A stretch of 64,000 bases of DNA from Methanocaldococcus sp. FS406-22 (GTDB lineage: Archaea; AGJL01; Methanococci; Methanococcales; Methanocaldococcaceae). The DNA lies in NCBI RefSeq assembly GCF_000025525.1, contig NC_013887.1:1498729-1562728 (forward strand). Direction: 5' to 3'. The translations under genes and the position numbers were made by a program. The notes beneath the pieces were generated by a model. It ran no database searches. It saw only the letters and a program-made list of their open reading frames with translations, and was not told the DNA's origin. Shown here piece by piece: positions 8,395 through 53,691 of the stretch. Within the stretch, counting starts at the first letter, position 1. Each line of letters starts with the position of its first letter.

Positions 8395-8833
8395 GAACAA
8401 AATATTTATATATGAGTTTGTCGATATTTTTTGATTGAGATGTTTTTAGGTGTTTATTATATTGTTGTGTTTGTCTCGTTGAATAGGCTTGGAATCTGAT
8501 AAGGGTAATAATTATTGTTTATTATCTTGTTTAGAGGATTTAAATTTAATTTCTAATGGTCTGTTGGTTTAATCATTTGGAATATTTAGGTTTATTAAAT
8601 TATTTAGATTTTTAGAAGTTAAGATTAGATAGTAAGTCAAATAAAATTTCTCCAACTAATAAGTTAAATCTTCAAATTTAGAAAGATAAGAATACTCAAT
8701 TTAACTAAAAGAGAAAGATTTAAATATCAGGGGGTTTATAAATAAAGACAGTTATCTATACTTAGAAAAATATAGTGTCGAAAAGTATATATATTAGAAG
8801 AATAATAAAAAATAGGTTGAGAATGATTGCCCT
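8395..8833 (+). promoter_or_regulatory. CRISPR array 1 leader
   Basis: About 440 gene-free bases directly before the first repeat. It is homologous over about 400 bases to the leader of array 2 (15290-15694): shared words include GGAATATTTAGGTT, AAGAATACTCAATTT, AGATTTAAATATCAG and the last bases GATGATTGCCCT or GAATGATTGCCCT before the repeat. CGAAAAGTATATATATTA at 8779-8796 looks like BRE plus TATA, placing the transcript start about 20 bases before the first repeat. Confidence 0.85.
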
Positions 8834-10241
8834 GTTAAAATAAGACCGATTCGGTATGGAAACCTTTTAATTTCTCCATCAACTCTTCTCCACATTCTTG
8901 TTAAAATAAGACCGATTCGGTATGGAAACTGTTATCCCTCAATCCCAATATCTGGACAAAGGAGTATATAAGTTAAAATAAGACCGATTCGGTATGGAAA
9001 CGAGTTCATAGGACCATGAGGGGGGCAACTCCTTGGGCAGTTAAAATAAGACCGATTCGGTATGGAAACTGTATATCATAATTACAATTCCAATAATCAC
9101 AGATGAAATTAGGTTAAAATAAGACCGATTCGGTATGGAAACTTTCACTCAATAAACTATCTATCTGTATTGCAATCTCCATATCATCGTTAAAATAAGA
9201 CCGATTCGGTATGGAAACCTACTTCTTAACCTTGAGCTGAAGCTTCTATGTCTGGTTAAAATAAGACCGATTCGGTATGGAAACACGATTGTGTGTAATG
9301 AACTAAATTGCAATTACAACAAGTTAAAATAAGACCGATTCGGTATGGAAACACATACTCTAAGAGATTCTCTAAGTCATTGTGATAGTTAAAATAAGAC
9401 CGATTCGGTATGGAAACATTTTCACACAATATAAGCAGTTCTTTCATTTCTTGTTAAAATAAGACCGATTCGGTATGGAAACGTTTTTACATCGATACAA
9501 GTAAGGTCTGAATTATCGTTAAAATAAGACCGATTCGGTATGGAAACTAAATCTTGTCAGCTCCTTTTAACTTTACATTTAAATCAGTAGTTAAAATAAG
9601 ACCGATTCGGTATGGAAACTCCACTTCTTTCTTAACAGTAATAGAAGGTTTAAGTTAAAATAAGACCGATTCGGTATGGAAACCTCCTTTGTCATTTATT
9701 ACTCTAATTGTTCCTTTATGGTGTTAAAATAAGACCGATTCGGTATGGAAACAAAAAAACAGATTACATCGTTCAAGAAATCATCAAATCTTAGTTAAAA
9801 TAAGACCGATTCGGTATGGAAACTATTATTATGATGATAAATACACAATAAACTTGGACAGCTCGTTAAAATAAGACCGATTCGGTATGGAAACTTTTGT
9901 TGAAACTCAACAACACTTAAATATTTTGGTCTGTTAAAATAAGACCGATTCGGTATGGAAACCTGCCAATGCCTATGCCTCAAATACCTATGCCACAGAG
10001 TTAAAATAAGACCGATTCGGTATGGAAACGTATCAATGACGACTCTCATTTCTCCTTCTTCTGCAGTTGCTGTTAAAATAAGACCGATTCGGTATGGAAA
10101 CATATTATTAGTTTTTGCCTTTGGTGGTTTAAAATTAGTTAAAATCAGACCTCTTAGAGGATGGAAACCTGGTAAATGCTTTTCTATAAACTTTATGATG
10201 TCTACAAATTGTTAAAATCAGACCTCTTGGAGGATGGAAAT
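8834..10241 (+). CRISPR. CRISPR array 1: 21 repeats, 20 spacers, chimeric
   Basis: Nineteen 30-base repeats beginning GTTAAAATAAGACC, with a CCGATTCGG palindrome and ending ATGGAAAC, start at 8834, 8900, 8972, 9040, 9113, 9189, 9255, 9323, 9388, 9453, 9518, 9590, 9654, 9723, 9794, 9865, 9933, 10000 and 10072. They appear identical. Spacers are 34 to 46 bases. The last two repeats (10138-10168 and 10211-10241) are a different 31-base type beginning GTTAAAATCAGACC with a CCTCTTAGAGG palindrome (second copy has TTGGAGG and ends GGAAAT), the type used by array 2. The ATGGAAAC end would be the crRNA 5' handle. No cas gene lies in the window, so Cas proteins must act in trans. Confidence 0.98.
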
Positions 10242-10273
10242 AGAGCATTAAACACTAAAAAAGAAGATTATAT

Positions 10274-10714
10274 TCATGTAGAAGAAGAGATAACTTTAGC
10301 TATTTTGTATGGAATTATCGCAAGTAATCCCAACACCAAATATATTGTTATGTCATTAAAAACGCTCCAATCTGCCCAATCCTCAAATCCTAATAAAAAC
10401 CCAATGGCATCAGATATTAAAATCAAAAAGGCAATAATCCCAATACCTAAACCAATAATAGAAGCAGTAAATAGATAAGAAATTGCCTTTATATCATTAT
10501 CCACCGCCTTTTTTACTCCTAAGATATATGCTACTCCAACAGCCAATAAAGCCAATCCTCCAAATGCATCTCCCAAAAATAATGGCAATTTAATTTTAAC
10601 TCCCAATATTGAGTAAAATCCAAGTATTATTTCAACAATTCCAGAAACTGCAAATAACAGTCCAAATATCAAAGATAAAGAAATTACGGTATTCCTTATA
10701 TTCTTTATATCCAT
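10274..10714 (-). CDS. Four-helix membrane protein, unknown
   Basis: 146 residues with four or five hydrophobic helices (VISLSLIFGLLFAVSGIVEI, LGDAFGGLALLAVGVAYIL, LFTASIIGLGIGIIAFLIL, IYLVLGLLAIIPYKIA). No charged residues inside helices and no family recognised. Its stop lies 32 bases from the last repeat of array 1 and its start about 12 bases from the GC-rich IS605-like element, so both flanks are mobile or CRISPR DNA. Probably a real gene given the clean topology. Confidence 0.55.
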   Translation of the reverse strand: MDIKNIRNTVISLSLIFGLLFAVSGIVEIILGFYSILGVKIKLPLFLGDAFGGLALLAVGVAYILGVKKAVDNDIKAISYLFTASIIGLGIGIIAFLILISDAIGFLLGFEDWADWSVFNDITIYLVLGLLAIIPYKIAKVISSST

Positions 10715-10726
10715 ACTTAATCACCA

Positions 10727-10934
10727 TAATTGTCGCTAAGGAAACTCCAAGCTTTAGCTCGGAGATTGGAAGGTAAGTAAGCATAATTTTTATAGTTCGA
10801 TAGTGTATAATTCTTATTTGAGGCTGTCTGACCCAGCCCGATGAGCTGAACCTGCCTTGTGACCCATCGGTGACGATGGGTAGTAGGGTGTTCCCAGTGG
10901 GAACCTCCGCCCTTTAGGGTGGAGAGGAGGTCAG
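10727..10934 (+). mobile_element. IS200/IS605-derived non-autonomous element or TnpB guide-RNA (omega RNA) locus
   Basis: About 200 bases far richer in G+C than the surroundings, with no ORF. Perfect or near-perfect hairpins: CTCC-AGC/GCT-GGAG at 10745-10764; CCCATCG/CGATGGG with loop GTGA at 10863-10880; GTTCCC/GGGAAC with loop AGT at 10890-10904; CTCCGCCC/GGGTGGAG with loop TTTA at 10905-10924, followed by AGGAGGTCAG. The AAGCTTTAGCT hairpin resembles IS200/IS605 left ends, and the CCGCCCTTTAGGG hairpin plus GAGGAGGTCAG resembles their right ends and the 3' end of TnpB omega RNA. Transposase and tnpB are absent. The right end touches the feoB stop codon, so any guide would derive from feoB. 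Could instead be a conserved standalone ncRNA. Confidence 0.55.
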
Positions 10935-12941
10935 CTAAAACAATAGATTTCCAACAATAGAGATTATTAAAGCTACAATATAAGCTAATGTCATTTCATA
11001 AACTACCGCAAACAACGCCCATTTCCATCCAATCTCTTGTTTTATAACTGCCAATGTTGCTATGCACGGAAGATAAATTAAAGAGAATGCCATAAACGCA
11101 TAGGCAGATACTGGAGAGAATGCATGGGCAATAATGGATGAGAGATTTTCCTCTCCAGCTCCATACAACATTGCCAAGCTTCCAACAACAACCTCTTTAG
11201 CTATAATCCCAAACACCAAAGCTGAACAAGCTCTCCAATCCCAACCCATTGGAGAAAATAATGGAACTAAAGTTTTTCCAATAACTGCAACCCATGAATT
11301 GGCTATTAACTGAGGATTTTCAAATACTCCATCTCCTAAATATCCTGAAGGCCCATAAACTGACAAAACCCAAACTAATATAACTCCAAATACAATAATT
11401 GTCCCCGCTTTTCTTAAAAAGTCATATACTCTCTCCCAAGTATTTTTTAGAACTACATTTAGATGTGGAATATGATAAGGAGGAAGTTCAACAATTAAGT
11501 ATGAAGGAGATGTTTTAAAAACCAACTTTCTAAATAGAAGTGCTGTAATTAAAGCCAAAACAACTCCAAGGGCATACATGCTTATAATCACAACCCCTTG
11601 ATATTCTGGAAATAAAGCCCCAGCAAATAGTGCGTAGATTGGCAGTCGTGCAGAACATGACACTAAAGGATTTATTAATATGGTTAAAATCCTATCTTTC
11701 TCATCTTCTATTGTTCTTGTAGCCATTATCGCTGGAACATTGCATCCAAAACCCATAACTAATGGAATAACTGCCTTTCCAGGCAAACCAAATTTATTCA
11801 TTATCCTATCTGTTATAAATGGAATCCTTGCCATGTATCCACTGTCCTCTAAGAAGGATATGGCAAAGAACAAAAATGCCAATATTGGGAAAAACACTAA
11901 TACTGCCCCAACACCAGAGATAACTCCATCAGCCAACAATGATGCAATAAATTTATTGGATATAGATGATTTTATAATCTCTGACAAAAATCCAAAGAAA
12001 TATTCTATCATAGCTGAAAATGGCTTTGAAACATCGAATGTAAATTTAAATAACATCCATAAAAATGGAATTATCAGTAAAGTTCCTACTTTTTCATCTG
12101 TTAAAACATCATCGAGCATTTCAGTAGTTGTTAATTTTCCAGCCCTCCTTTTAACGACTTCTTTAACAATTTTATCAATAACCTTATATCTCTCTTCAAC
12201 TATTCCCAATTCTGCCTCTCCATATTTTTTTGACAACTCTTTTATAATATTATCTAACACTGGTTTTAACTCATTCCAAACTTTGCTATTTTTTACAATC
12301 TCCTCTACATATTTATCATTCTCAAGGAGCTTTATAGCTAAATATCTCAGATTGTAATTCTTTAAATTATCATCTTTCTGTAAAATAGAGGTTATTTTTT
12401 TAATGTAAGGTTCAAAGTTTGGGTATTTGATTTCAGCTATCTTTTTATCTTTTACTGCTGTAGATATGGCTTTTTTTAAATCTTCAATACCTATCTTTTT
12501 AACTGCAGATAATGGAACAACTTTAACTCCTAAAATCTTCTCTAATTTATCTACATCAATCTCTATTCCTAAACTCTTAGCTAAATCCATTTTATTTAAA
12601 GCTAACAATAAATTAGCCCCCATCTCCATTAATTGTAAAGTTAGGTATAAATTCCTCTCTAAGGCGGTGGCATCAACAATATTAACAACTAAGTCAGGTT
12701 TTTCATTTATTATGTAATCCCTCGCAATAATTTCATCAATAGAATTGGCTGTTAAGCTATAAACTCCAGGTAAATCAACAACTTTAAATTTCTCTCCGTT
12801 ATATTCAAATTCTCCCTCTTTTTTCTCTACAGTTACCCCAGCCCAATTTCCAATATACACATTTTCTCCAGTTAAAGCGTTAAATATGGTAGATTTACCG
12901 ACATTTGGGTTACCAATTAAAGCTATTTCATAGCTTTTCAT
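10935..12941 (-). CDS. feoB: Ferrous iron transporter FeoB
   Basis: 668 residues. N-terminal G domain with GNPNVGKSTIFN (residues 10-21), DLPGVYSL and NKMDLAK, then a helical GDI-like region and a membrane domain with two Gate repeats (GYMARIPFITDR, GFGCNVPAIMATR; C-terminal PCIATLAVIKQE). Imports Fe2+ across the membrane. Two ATGs are adjacent; the second (12941) is better placed behind GGGAG. It overlaps feoA by 14 bases, so translation is coupled. Transcribed from the operator-bearing promoter at 13180-13260. Its stop codon abuts the hairpin element at 10934. Confidence 0.95.
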   Translation of the reverse strand: MKSYEIALIGNPNVGKSTIFNALTGENVYIGNWAGVTVEKKEGEFEYNGEKFKVVDLPGVYSLTANSIDEIIARDYIINEKPDLVVNIVDATALERNLYLTLQLMEMGANLLLALNKMDLAKSLGIEIDVDKLEKILGVKVVPLSAVKKIGIEDLKKAISTAVKDKKIAEIKYPNFEPYIKKITSILQKDDNLKNYNLRYLAIKLLENDKYVEEIVKNSKVWNELKPVLDNIIKELSKKYGEAELGIVEERYKVIDKIVKEVVKRRAGKLTTTEMLDDVLTDEKVGTLLIIPFLWMLFKFTFDVSKPFSAMIEYFFGFLSEIIKSSISNKFIASLLADGVISGVGAVLVFFPILAFLFFAISFLEDSGYMARIPFITDRIMNKFGLPGKAVIPLVMGFGCNVPAIMATRTIEDEKDRILTILINPLVSCSARLPIYALFAGALFPEYQGVVIISMYALGVVLALITALLFRKLVFKTSPSYLIVELPPYHIPHLNVVLKNTWERVYDFLRKAGTIIVFGVILVWVLSVYGPSGYLGDGVFENPQLIANSWVAVIGKTLVPLFSPMGWDWRACSALVFGIIAKEVVVGSLAMLYGAGEENLSSIIAHAFSPVSAYAFMAFSLIYLPCIATLAVIKQEIGWKWALFAVVYEMTLAYIVALIISIVGNLLF

Positions 12942-15214: not shown

Positions 15215-15289
15215 ATAATCACCGTGGTGAATTTAATCAACATAAAAATTATGGAGTAAAGTATATATTTTTGTTGCTATAATTTTATT

Positions 15290-15694
15290 TTAAGGTTGAG
15301 ATTATTGTAGTAGTTTATTGTAGTGTTGTGGTTGTCTCGTTGGATGTGTTTGAAATTTAATAAAGGTAATAATTATTTAGTATTTGTTAATTTAGAGGGT
15401 TTTTATTTGATTTCTAAGGGTTTGTAAGTTTGATTATTTGGAATATTTAGGTTCATTAAATTATTTAGATTTTTAAAAATTAAGATTGAATAGTAAGTTA
15501 AATGGGATTCCTCTAACTAATAAGTTAAATTTTCAAATTTAGAAAAATAAGAATACTCAATTTGATTAAAAGGGAAAGATTTAAATATCAGAAGGTTTAT
15601 AAATAAAAGGTGTCATCTATACTTGAAAAAATATGGTTCCGAAAAGCTTAAATATTAGAAGAGTGATTAAAATTATATTGTCGATGATTGCCCT
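15290..15694 (+). promoter_or_regulatory. CRISPR array 2 leader
   Basis: Gene-free AT-rich DNA ending GATGATTGCCCT directly before the first repeat, homologous to the array 1 leader over its whole length with scattered substitutions. CGAAAAGCTTAAATATTA at 15640-15657 corresponds position for position to the array 1 promoter-like box. Confidence 0.85.
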
Positions 15695-16071
15695 GTTAAA
15701 ATCAGACCTCTTAGAGGATGGAAACATGTAGTGATAAAGAAAGTCCATGACAAAGACGTTATCAAGTTAAAATCAGACCTCTTAGAGGATGGAAACTTTC
15801 TGACAAGTTAGCAAGTATCGGGAGTAAGTCCATGGTTAAAATCAGACCTCTTAGAGGATGGAAACACACACTACTAAACTTGTTTATATCTGTTGTAAGT
15901 GTTAAAAATAGTTAAAATCAGACCTCTTGGAGGATGGAAACTTAGTTGTAATATAATATTTTTCAATGTTGCAATTGTAGTTAAAATCAGACCTCTTGGA
16001 GGATGGAAACTAAAATAACAGATGATTTAACTAAAGTAGTAAATGAAAGTTAAAATCAGACCTCTTAGAGG
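15695..16071 (+). CRISPR. CRISPR array 2: six repeats, five spacers
   Basis: 31-base repeats beginning GTTAAAATCAGACC, with a CCTCTTAGAGG palindrome and ending ATGGAAAC, start at 15695, 15766, 15835, 15911, 15980 and 16049. The fourth and fifth carry TTGGAGG in place of TTAGAGG. The sixth (16049-16071) is cut after the palindrome and lacks the ATGGAAAC end, a typical degenerate leader-distal terminus. Spacers are 38 to 45 bases. Same orientation as array 1 and about 5.4 kb from its end. Confidence 0.97.
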
Positions 16072-53476: not shown

Positions 53477-53691
53477 TTTTTCACCAAAAATGAGTTTCTG
53501 AATTTTGAGATATTTGTAGCCATATTTAATAAAAAAAGCGATGATTATAAATAAATTTTGGTTTAATTTTTTGTATTTTTATTAATTTAAATTTATAGAT
53601 TTATATATAGGTTATCAATTACAATAATACTATATAAAAACCAGAATAAAAACCAGAAAAATAAAAAAACTATAAAAATAGTAAAAATTAT

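What the first reader, a model, noticed from the sequence alone, without database searches (positions are those of the whole stretch)
10072..10241. Chimeric CRISPR array: repeat type switches near the distal end
Nineteen array 1 repeats (CCGATTCGG core) are followed by two repeats of array 2 type (CCTCTTAGAGG core). New units are added at the leader, so the oldest units are of type 2 and the array later changed repeat type. The palindrome changed as a whole, with compensating arms and length 31 to 30, so this is replacement by recombination or leader-repeat capture, not drift.
Basis: seen in the sequence. Interest (0 to 1): 0.75.

Follow-up and report, generated by a model that had tools for sequence, protein, structure and literature searches.

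The report
CRISPR arrays swapping their front halves
This archaeon's CRISPR array has a newer front part built with one kind of repeat and an old tail built with another, and the same patchwork recurs across the genome and its relatives, apparently because the many scattered arrays keep recombining with one another and scrambling the chromosome as they do so.

Summary
Array 1 (8834-10241) has 19 identical 30-nt repeats (type A, Rfam CRISPR-DR13), then two distal 31-nt repeats (type B, Rfam CRISPR-DR39). It is not unique: 7 of 13 A-led arrays in this Methanocaldococcus genome carry B distally. 8 of 17 classified arrays in one relative are mixed, in both directions, as are 2 of 13 in another. 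The genome has one Cas1 and one Cas6 hit. Leaders within a genome resemble each other more than they resemble the leaders at matching flanks in another species (0.84-0.90 against 0.76), and they are strongly mosaic. In G007 two arrays share 341 identical leader bases but start with different repeat types. Array flanks are re-paired between species in 8 of 11 testable arrays. The DNA downstream of array 1 has a different upstream neighbour in each of the five species where I could identify one. Best reading: ectopic homologous recombination between dispersed arrays replaces the leader end, and the old distal repeats remain as fossils. Mixed repeats (Pyrobaculum) and CRISPR-linked inversions (Thermotogales) are already in print; the combination and scale seen here I did not find.

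The parts
8425..8833 (+). Leader of array 1 (A-type leader)
   Evidence: Homologous to the leaders of 22 loci in this genome; mosaic against the other leaders
8834..10101 (+). Nineteen identical type-A repeats (30 nt, CCGATTCGG palindrome) with their spacers; newer part of array 1
   Evidence: Rfam RF01326 CRISPR-DR13
10102..10137 (+). Spacer spanning the A-to-B junction
   Evidence: no equal among the 541 spacers of the fetched arrays of three genomes
10138..10168 (+). Type-B repeat (31 nt, CCTCTTAGAGG palindrome), older stratum
   Evidence: Rfam RF01358 CRISPR-DR39
10169..10210 (+). Spacer between the two type-B repeats
   Evidence: With up to 3 mismatches found in its own genome only, 1 of 14 genus genomes
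10211..10241 (+). Terminal type-B repeat
   Evidence: B-like terminal repeats at the same downstream flank in G007 and G006
10242..10717 (.). Downstream flank of array 1 (ORF 10274-10714 on the minus strand), the anchor that keeps its place next to feoB
   Evidence: 84% identical in G007, next to array L065; also found in G012, G006, G005, G011 and G003
15286..15694 (+). Leader of array 2 (B-type leader)
   Evidence: 81-82% identical to leader 1
15695..16071 (+). Array 2, type B throughout (five full repeats and one truncated)
   Evidence: the same locus in G007 and G006 is type A with a B-like terminal repeat

Best explanation
Array 1 is a composite made by ectopic homologous recombination between the roughly 20 dispersed CRISPR arrays of one chromosome. 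The arrays share a homologous leader of about 400 bp and very similar repeats. Recombination between two arrays gives the downstream half of one array (old B repeats, trailer and downstream flank) the upstream half of another (flank, leader and first A repeat). Sometimes this is a crossover, which also re-pairs the chromosomal flanks; sometimes it is a conversion confined to leader and first repeat. The one adaptation machinery then copies the new first repeat at each acquisition, so later units are all type A, and the two distal B units stay as a fossil of the earlier state. Shown here: block-wise mixing, recombination among leaders, concerted evolution of leaders, re-paired flanks, conserved B-like terminal repeats. 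Inferred: that the first repeat is the copying template (established for other systems), the order of events at array 1, and processing of both repeat types by the one Cas6.
For: Mixing is block-wise and common: 7 of 13 A-led G000 arrays carry B distally, 0 of 8 B-led carry A; G007 shows both directions. Leaders: orthologous pairs 0.759 identity (n=11), non-orthologous between genomes 0.761 (n=110), within G000 0.844 (n=55), within G007 0.899 (n=55), although the upstream flanks of those 11 pairs are 88-93% identical. PHI with a 25-nt window: 0 of 2000 permutations reach the observed value in each of the three genomes. G007 L064 (B) and L066 (A) share 341 identical leader bases plus 14 bases of repeat, then differ; L061 and L062 share 396 plus 30. 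Flanks: of 11 G000 arrays with both flanks next to G007 arrays, 8 are re-paired and 3 in place. G000 L037 and L039 pair the flanks of G012 L071 and L078 reciprocally; L031 (array 1) and L041 form a second such pair against G012. The downstream flank of array 1 has five different upstream neighbours in five species. One Cas1 and one Cas6.
Against: For array 1 the crossover point cannot be placed: G007 has no array beside the upstream flank, and the G012 array there is only A-B with an apparently cut leader. In-place switches (L038/L061, L043/L066, L048/L054) show that flank re-pairing is not needed for a type change. Blocks that switch and switch back (L038, L034, L067) need repeated events or another mechanism. 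Only 1 spacer is shared between two arrays of a genome, none between genomes, in 541 spacers, so exchange of whole units is not directly visible. In G000 PHI is no longer significant at a 100-nt window (457 of 2000), and its longest exact leader tract at the repeat junction is only 75 nt. One synteny break lies in array-free DNA, near window 53.6 kb.
Confidence: 0.8

Rival explanations
1. Conversion only: at array 1 the leader and first repeat were overwritten by copy from another array with no crossover, and the flank re-pairing is a separate, unconnected event.
For: In-place type changes at loci with both flanks conserved: L038 (A13B) / L061 (B-led) / L076 (A) and L043 (B) / L066 (A then B-like). 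Leader linkage decays within about 25-50 nt in G000, which suggests short tracts.
Against: At array 1 the flanks are in fact re-paired relative to G007, G005, G006 and G012, and array 1 with L041 forms a reciprocal pair against G012, so an exchange in or next to this array did happen.
Confidence: 0.3
2. During spacer acquisition the new repeat was templated from the first repeat of another array in trans, so the repeat type changed without DNA recombination.
For: Offered as one of two possibilities for mixed repeats in Pyrobaculum (PMC3396285, section 12 part 1 read). G007 L064 and L066 have 341 identical leader bases with different first repeats.
Against: The same identity is explained by a conversion tract ending in the 14 bases that both repeat types share. 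The leaders themselves recombine and the flanks re-pair, which trans-templating does not predict.
Confidence: 0.07
3. The A half came by recombination with an array of another strain (horizontal exchange), not from another locus of the same genome.
For: Flank-matched recombination between strains would also leave a leader-side replacement; the data hold only one genome per species.
Against: The type-A repeats of array 1 are exactly those of ten other arrays of the same genome, and re-paired flanks need exchange between different loci.
Confidence: 0.1
4. Point mutation and drift turned B repeats into A repeats.
For: Single-unit private variants do occur inside arrays.
Against: The palindrome, a second site and the length differ together, with no intermediate run in any array read.
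Confidence: 0.01
5. Assembly error joining two arrays.
For: None found; repeats are a known hazard for assembly.
Against: Seven arrays of this genome, ten of two relatives and two contigs of an independent MAG show the same kind of junction, and the downstream flank with a B-like end is found in other species.
Confidence: 0.01

Closest known systems
Mixed direct repeats ('DR mixing') in Pyrobaculum oguniense crispr1 and P. neutrophilum crispr5 (Bernick et al. 2012, PMC3396285; section 12 part 1 read)
   Same: Blocks of different repeat families in one array; homologous recombination or copying of another array's leader-proximal repeat suggested as cause; gene conversion raised for the conserved promoter-like element.
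   Different: Two arrays there. Here 17 of 51 classified arrays in three genomes, with direct evidence of leader recombination, of conserved B-like terminal repeats across species and of re-paired flanks.
CRISPR-associated inversions in Thermotogales (DeBoy et al. 2006; the paper is not held; known from a citing passage in PMC5052741)
   Same: Chromosome rearrangement breakpoints lie at CRISPR loci.
   Different: Here the array itself carries the trace, as a repeat-type boundary, and the same array flank is paired differently in five species.
Recombination at repeats within Sulfolobus CRISPR loci (PMC3025118; passages read)
   Same: Homologous recombination at repeats remodels arrays.
   Different: There it mainly deletes units within a locus; here exchange is between dispersed loci and involves the leaders.
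[quoted passage not shown] 2015, as cited in PMC11472070; passages read)
   Same: Spacer sharing between arrays is rare here too: 1 case in 541 spacers.
   Different: Leader, repeat and flank evidence shows frequent exchange that spacer comparison misses.

Membership tests
CRISPR array | Near-identical repeats separated by unique spacers of similar length next to a leader | tested here: met
   21 repeats, spacers of 34-46 nt, leader homologous across loci; Rfam CRISPR-DR13 and DR39
CRISPR array | cas genes in the genome | tested here: met
   One Cas1, one Cas6, and Cas3, Cas4, Cas5 and Cas7 models with I-A and I-B labels in one cluster, L089 (some of the Cas5 hits are below their family cut-offs)
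CRISPR array | Transcription and crRNA processing of both repeat types | not testable with these tools
   Needs small-RNA sequencing
Mixed-repeat array (Pyrobaculum kind) | Two repeat families in blocks inside one array | tested here: met
   19 A then 2 B; 17 of 51 classified arrays mixed, runs fewer than in any of 5000 shuffles
Mixed-repeat array (Pyrobaculum kind) | Both repeat families also lead other, unmixed arrays of the same genome | tested here: met
   13 A-led (6 unmixed) and 8 B-led (8 unmixed) arrays in G000
CRISPR-associated chromosome rearrangement (Thermotogales kind) | Synteny breaks coincide with arrays | tested here: met
   8 of 11 arrays with both flanks mapped are re-paired against G007; the 39.8 kb of array-free window queried shows one major break
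CRISPR-associated chromosome rearrangement (Thermotogales kind) | Breakpoints enriched at arrays genome-wide | tested here: inconclusive

The most novel reading that the evidence does not exclude
In Methanocaldococcus the dispersed CRISPR cassettes act as a genome-wide set of homologous recombination sites. Crossovers between them repeatedly re-pair the chromosome, leaders and first repeats evolve in concert, and each array keeps a dated record: the repeat-type boundary marks, counted in spacers, when its front half was replaced. Array 1 would then record a replacement 19 repeats ago.
Probability: 0.6. Interest if true: 0.65.

Novelty: new variant of a known kind. Interest (0 to 1): 0.52.

Why it matters
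Inter-array recombination is usually judged from shared spacers and called rare. Here repeats, leaders and flanks show that it has been frequent. Repeat-type boundaries would let one order chromosome rearrangements relative to spacer acquisitions inside a single genome. They also bear on a practical question: how one Cas1 and one Cas6 serve two repeat families, and why repeat type cannot be read off the leader.

Tried and rejected
Point-mutation drift and assembly error were considered and rejected (see rivals). A strict link of leader type to repeat type was considered. It holds loosely in G000 (six of the eight B-led arrays cluster in the leader tree and the other two pair with each other), but G000 L049 (B) has a leader end almost identical to that of L034 (A), and in G007 the link fails outright (L064 and L066). 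PF10040 was a poor probe for Cas6 here (0 of 5 genomes over its cut-off); TIGR01877 worked. Many forks of the leader tree are open and three rows have long branches, so the tree is used only for the by-genome grouping and the loose B clustering.

Rows dropped before counts: L052 (leader-like, no repeats found) and L070 (a third repeat type, unclassified) are not in the 51. In one search CCTCTAAGAGG was added to class B, which makes L066 mixed; it was unclassified. The distal A of L053 is degenerate and its class is doubtful. G007 leader matches at 1371533 and 564650 and the repeats at 1219844-1220165 were not fetched. L051, L069, L070, L079 and L083 were left out of some leader statistics for short or aberrant leaders; the first leader run had a wrong start for L058 and was redone. 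One search prints '17 of 52' because L070 counts there as an empty string.

Full report
What is there. Array 1 of the window has 19 identical 30-nt repeats (type A) followed at the leader-distal end by two 31-nt repeats (type B), at exactly the coordinates given. Rfam files the two kinds in two different families, RF01326 and RF01358. Array 2, 5.5 kb further on, is type B throughout. The window lies in a Methanocaldococcus-like genome of 1.77 Mb in two contigs, G000.

It is not a one-off. Searching the leader in 14 genus genomes gave 23 matches in G000, 20 in G007 and 15 in G012. I fetched 22, 18 and 13 loci and read every repeat. Classified arrays: 21, 17 and 13. In G000 13 are A-led and 8 B-led; 7 of the 13 A-led carry B repeats, always among the last three, and 0 of the 8 B-led carry A. 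In G007 3 of 9 A-led carry B and 5 of 8 B-led carry A (one of them, L053, doubtful). In G012 2 of 12 A-led carry B and the one B-led does not carry A. Mixing is in blocks: 37 runs against a shuffled mean of 57.8 and minimum of 49 in 5000 shuffles. Smaller variants also come in runs, sometimes switching and switching back, as in L034 and L038. In G000 40 of 221 repeat-to-repeat steps change variant, 31 of them to a variant held by at least two arrays. A scan of the GTDB species collection for an A-to-B junction found two stretches, both from one Methanocaldococcus MAG; records near the window's own genome may be left out of that scan.

The distal repeats are old. At the downstream flank of array 1 the terminal repeat is B in G000 and B-like in G007 and G006; G005 has type A throughout. 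The leader-side repeats differ between species: GATTCGG in G000, B in G007, GTTTCGG in G006, GGAACGG in G005. At the array 2 locus the terminal repeat is B or B-like in G000, G007 and G006, while the leader side is B, A and A.

Leaders recombine. Eleven leader pairs with matching upstream flanks in G000 and G007 are on average 0.759 identical over 300 nt; 110 non-matching pairs are 0.761; pairs within G000 are 0.844 and within G007 0.899. The upstream flanks of these pairs are 88-93% identical. No trace of locus-by-locus descent is left in the leaders, while each genome's leaders resemble each other: concerted evolution. Incompatibility rises and linkage falls with distance in all three genomes (PHI at 25 nt, 0 of 2000 permutations in each; in G000 the signal is gone at 100 nt, 457 of 2000). 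In G007, L061 and L062 have 396 identical bases running 30 bases into the first repeat. L064 and L066 have 341 identical leader bases plus the 14 repeat bases common to both types, then part into B and A.

Flanks are re-paired. Comparing unique flanks beyond the leader and after the last repeat, 11 G000 arrays have both flanks next to arrays of G007: 3 in place, 8 re-paired. The DNA just downstream of 15 arrays is mostly colinear. The array-free part of the window from 16.3 to 56.1 kb shows one major break, near 53.6 kb, against G007, and one 1.3-kb stretch whose match lies elsewhere in G007. G000 L037 and L039 carry the flanks of G012 L071 and L078 in swapped pairing. For array 1, G012 has the upstream flank followed by array L083 and its own downstream flank, and the downstream flank of array 1 preceded by the upstream flank of L041 without an array; G000 has array 1 and L041 with these exchanged. 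In G005 the first of these pairings exists with no array at all. The downstream flank of array 1 is preceded by five different flanks in G000, G007, G005, G006 and G012, in the first four through an array. In G011 and G003 the flank is present without an array and its upstream neighbour matched none of my flanks.

Machinery. G000 has one Cas1 hit and one hit to the Cas6 model TIGR01877. The cluster around them holds models labelled I-B and I-A (not all over their cut-offs). So one adaptation and one processing enzyme probably serve both repeat types. That is an inference.

How it most likely works. Recombination between dispersed arrays brings a new leader end onto an old distal end, by crossover or by conversion. 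New units then copy the new first repeat. Array 1 was probably changed by such an exchange 19 repeats ago. Which of crossover or conversion acted, and between which two arrays, cannot be fixed from one genome per species.

What is in print. Mixed repeats in two Pyrobaculum arrays, with the same two candidate causes, are described in PMC3396285 (section 12 part 1 read). Association of CRISPR loci with inversions in Thermotogales is cited in PMC5052741 (passages); the original is not held. Recombination at Sulfolobus repeats is in PMC3025118 (passages). Inter-array recombination is called rare in PMC11472070, citing Kupczok et al. (passages). My searches for Methanocaldococcus with CRISPR leaders, rearrangement or direct repeats, for concerted evolution or gene conversion with CRISPR leaders, and for recombination between arrays listed no paper whose title or abstract start describes this in the genus. 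The library holds open-licence papers only, so that is weak evidence of absence.

Verdict. A real feature with a well supported general cause; new in scale and in the link between repeat boundary, leader exchange and chromosome re-pairing, not new in kind.

Noticed in passing
window 10718-10934 (HgcC match 10820-10947): A segment of about 215 bp between the array's flanking ORF and feoB is absent at the same place in G007 and G012 and has relatives elsewhere in G007 and G011. It overlaps a strong match to the HgcC RNA family (119.9 bits), so this RNA gene may ride on a dispersed or mobile element. A very weak match to a sot RNA (E 0.21) hints at, but does not show, a link to IS605-type elements (that link is recalled).
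   Followed up: partly
L032, L040 and L041 in G000; L063, L066 and L067 in G007; L072 in G012: Identical spacers repeated within an array, up to seven copies in L067 and a two-spacer unit three times in L041: unequal recombination within arrays.
   Followed up: partly
G012 L075 spacer 4 and L076 spacer 6: The only spacer shared between two different arrays of a genome in 541 spacers.
   Followed up: no
downstream of the last repeat in ten G000 arrays (for example window 16072 onward): A shared trailer of about 110-200 bp follows the terminal repeat in ten G000 arrays, A-led and B-led, so the cassette has a conserved far end as well as a leader.
   Followed up: partly
L070 (G007:C1:349000-353590): An array of a third repeat type (GTAAAATCAGATCCCTCGGGGAATGGAAAT) behind a leader of the same family.
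   Followed up: no
G000 contig C2 (12,197 bases), L046: The small second contig, plausibly a plasmid, carries a B-type array with a leader of the chromosomal family.
   Followed up: no
window about 53565-53660: Synteny with G007 jumps from 547.0 kb to 912.9 kb here; the window sequence there holds no type-A or type-B repeat.
   Followed up: partly
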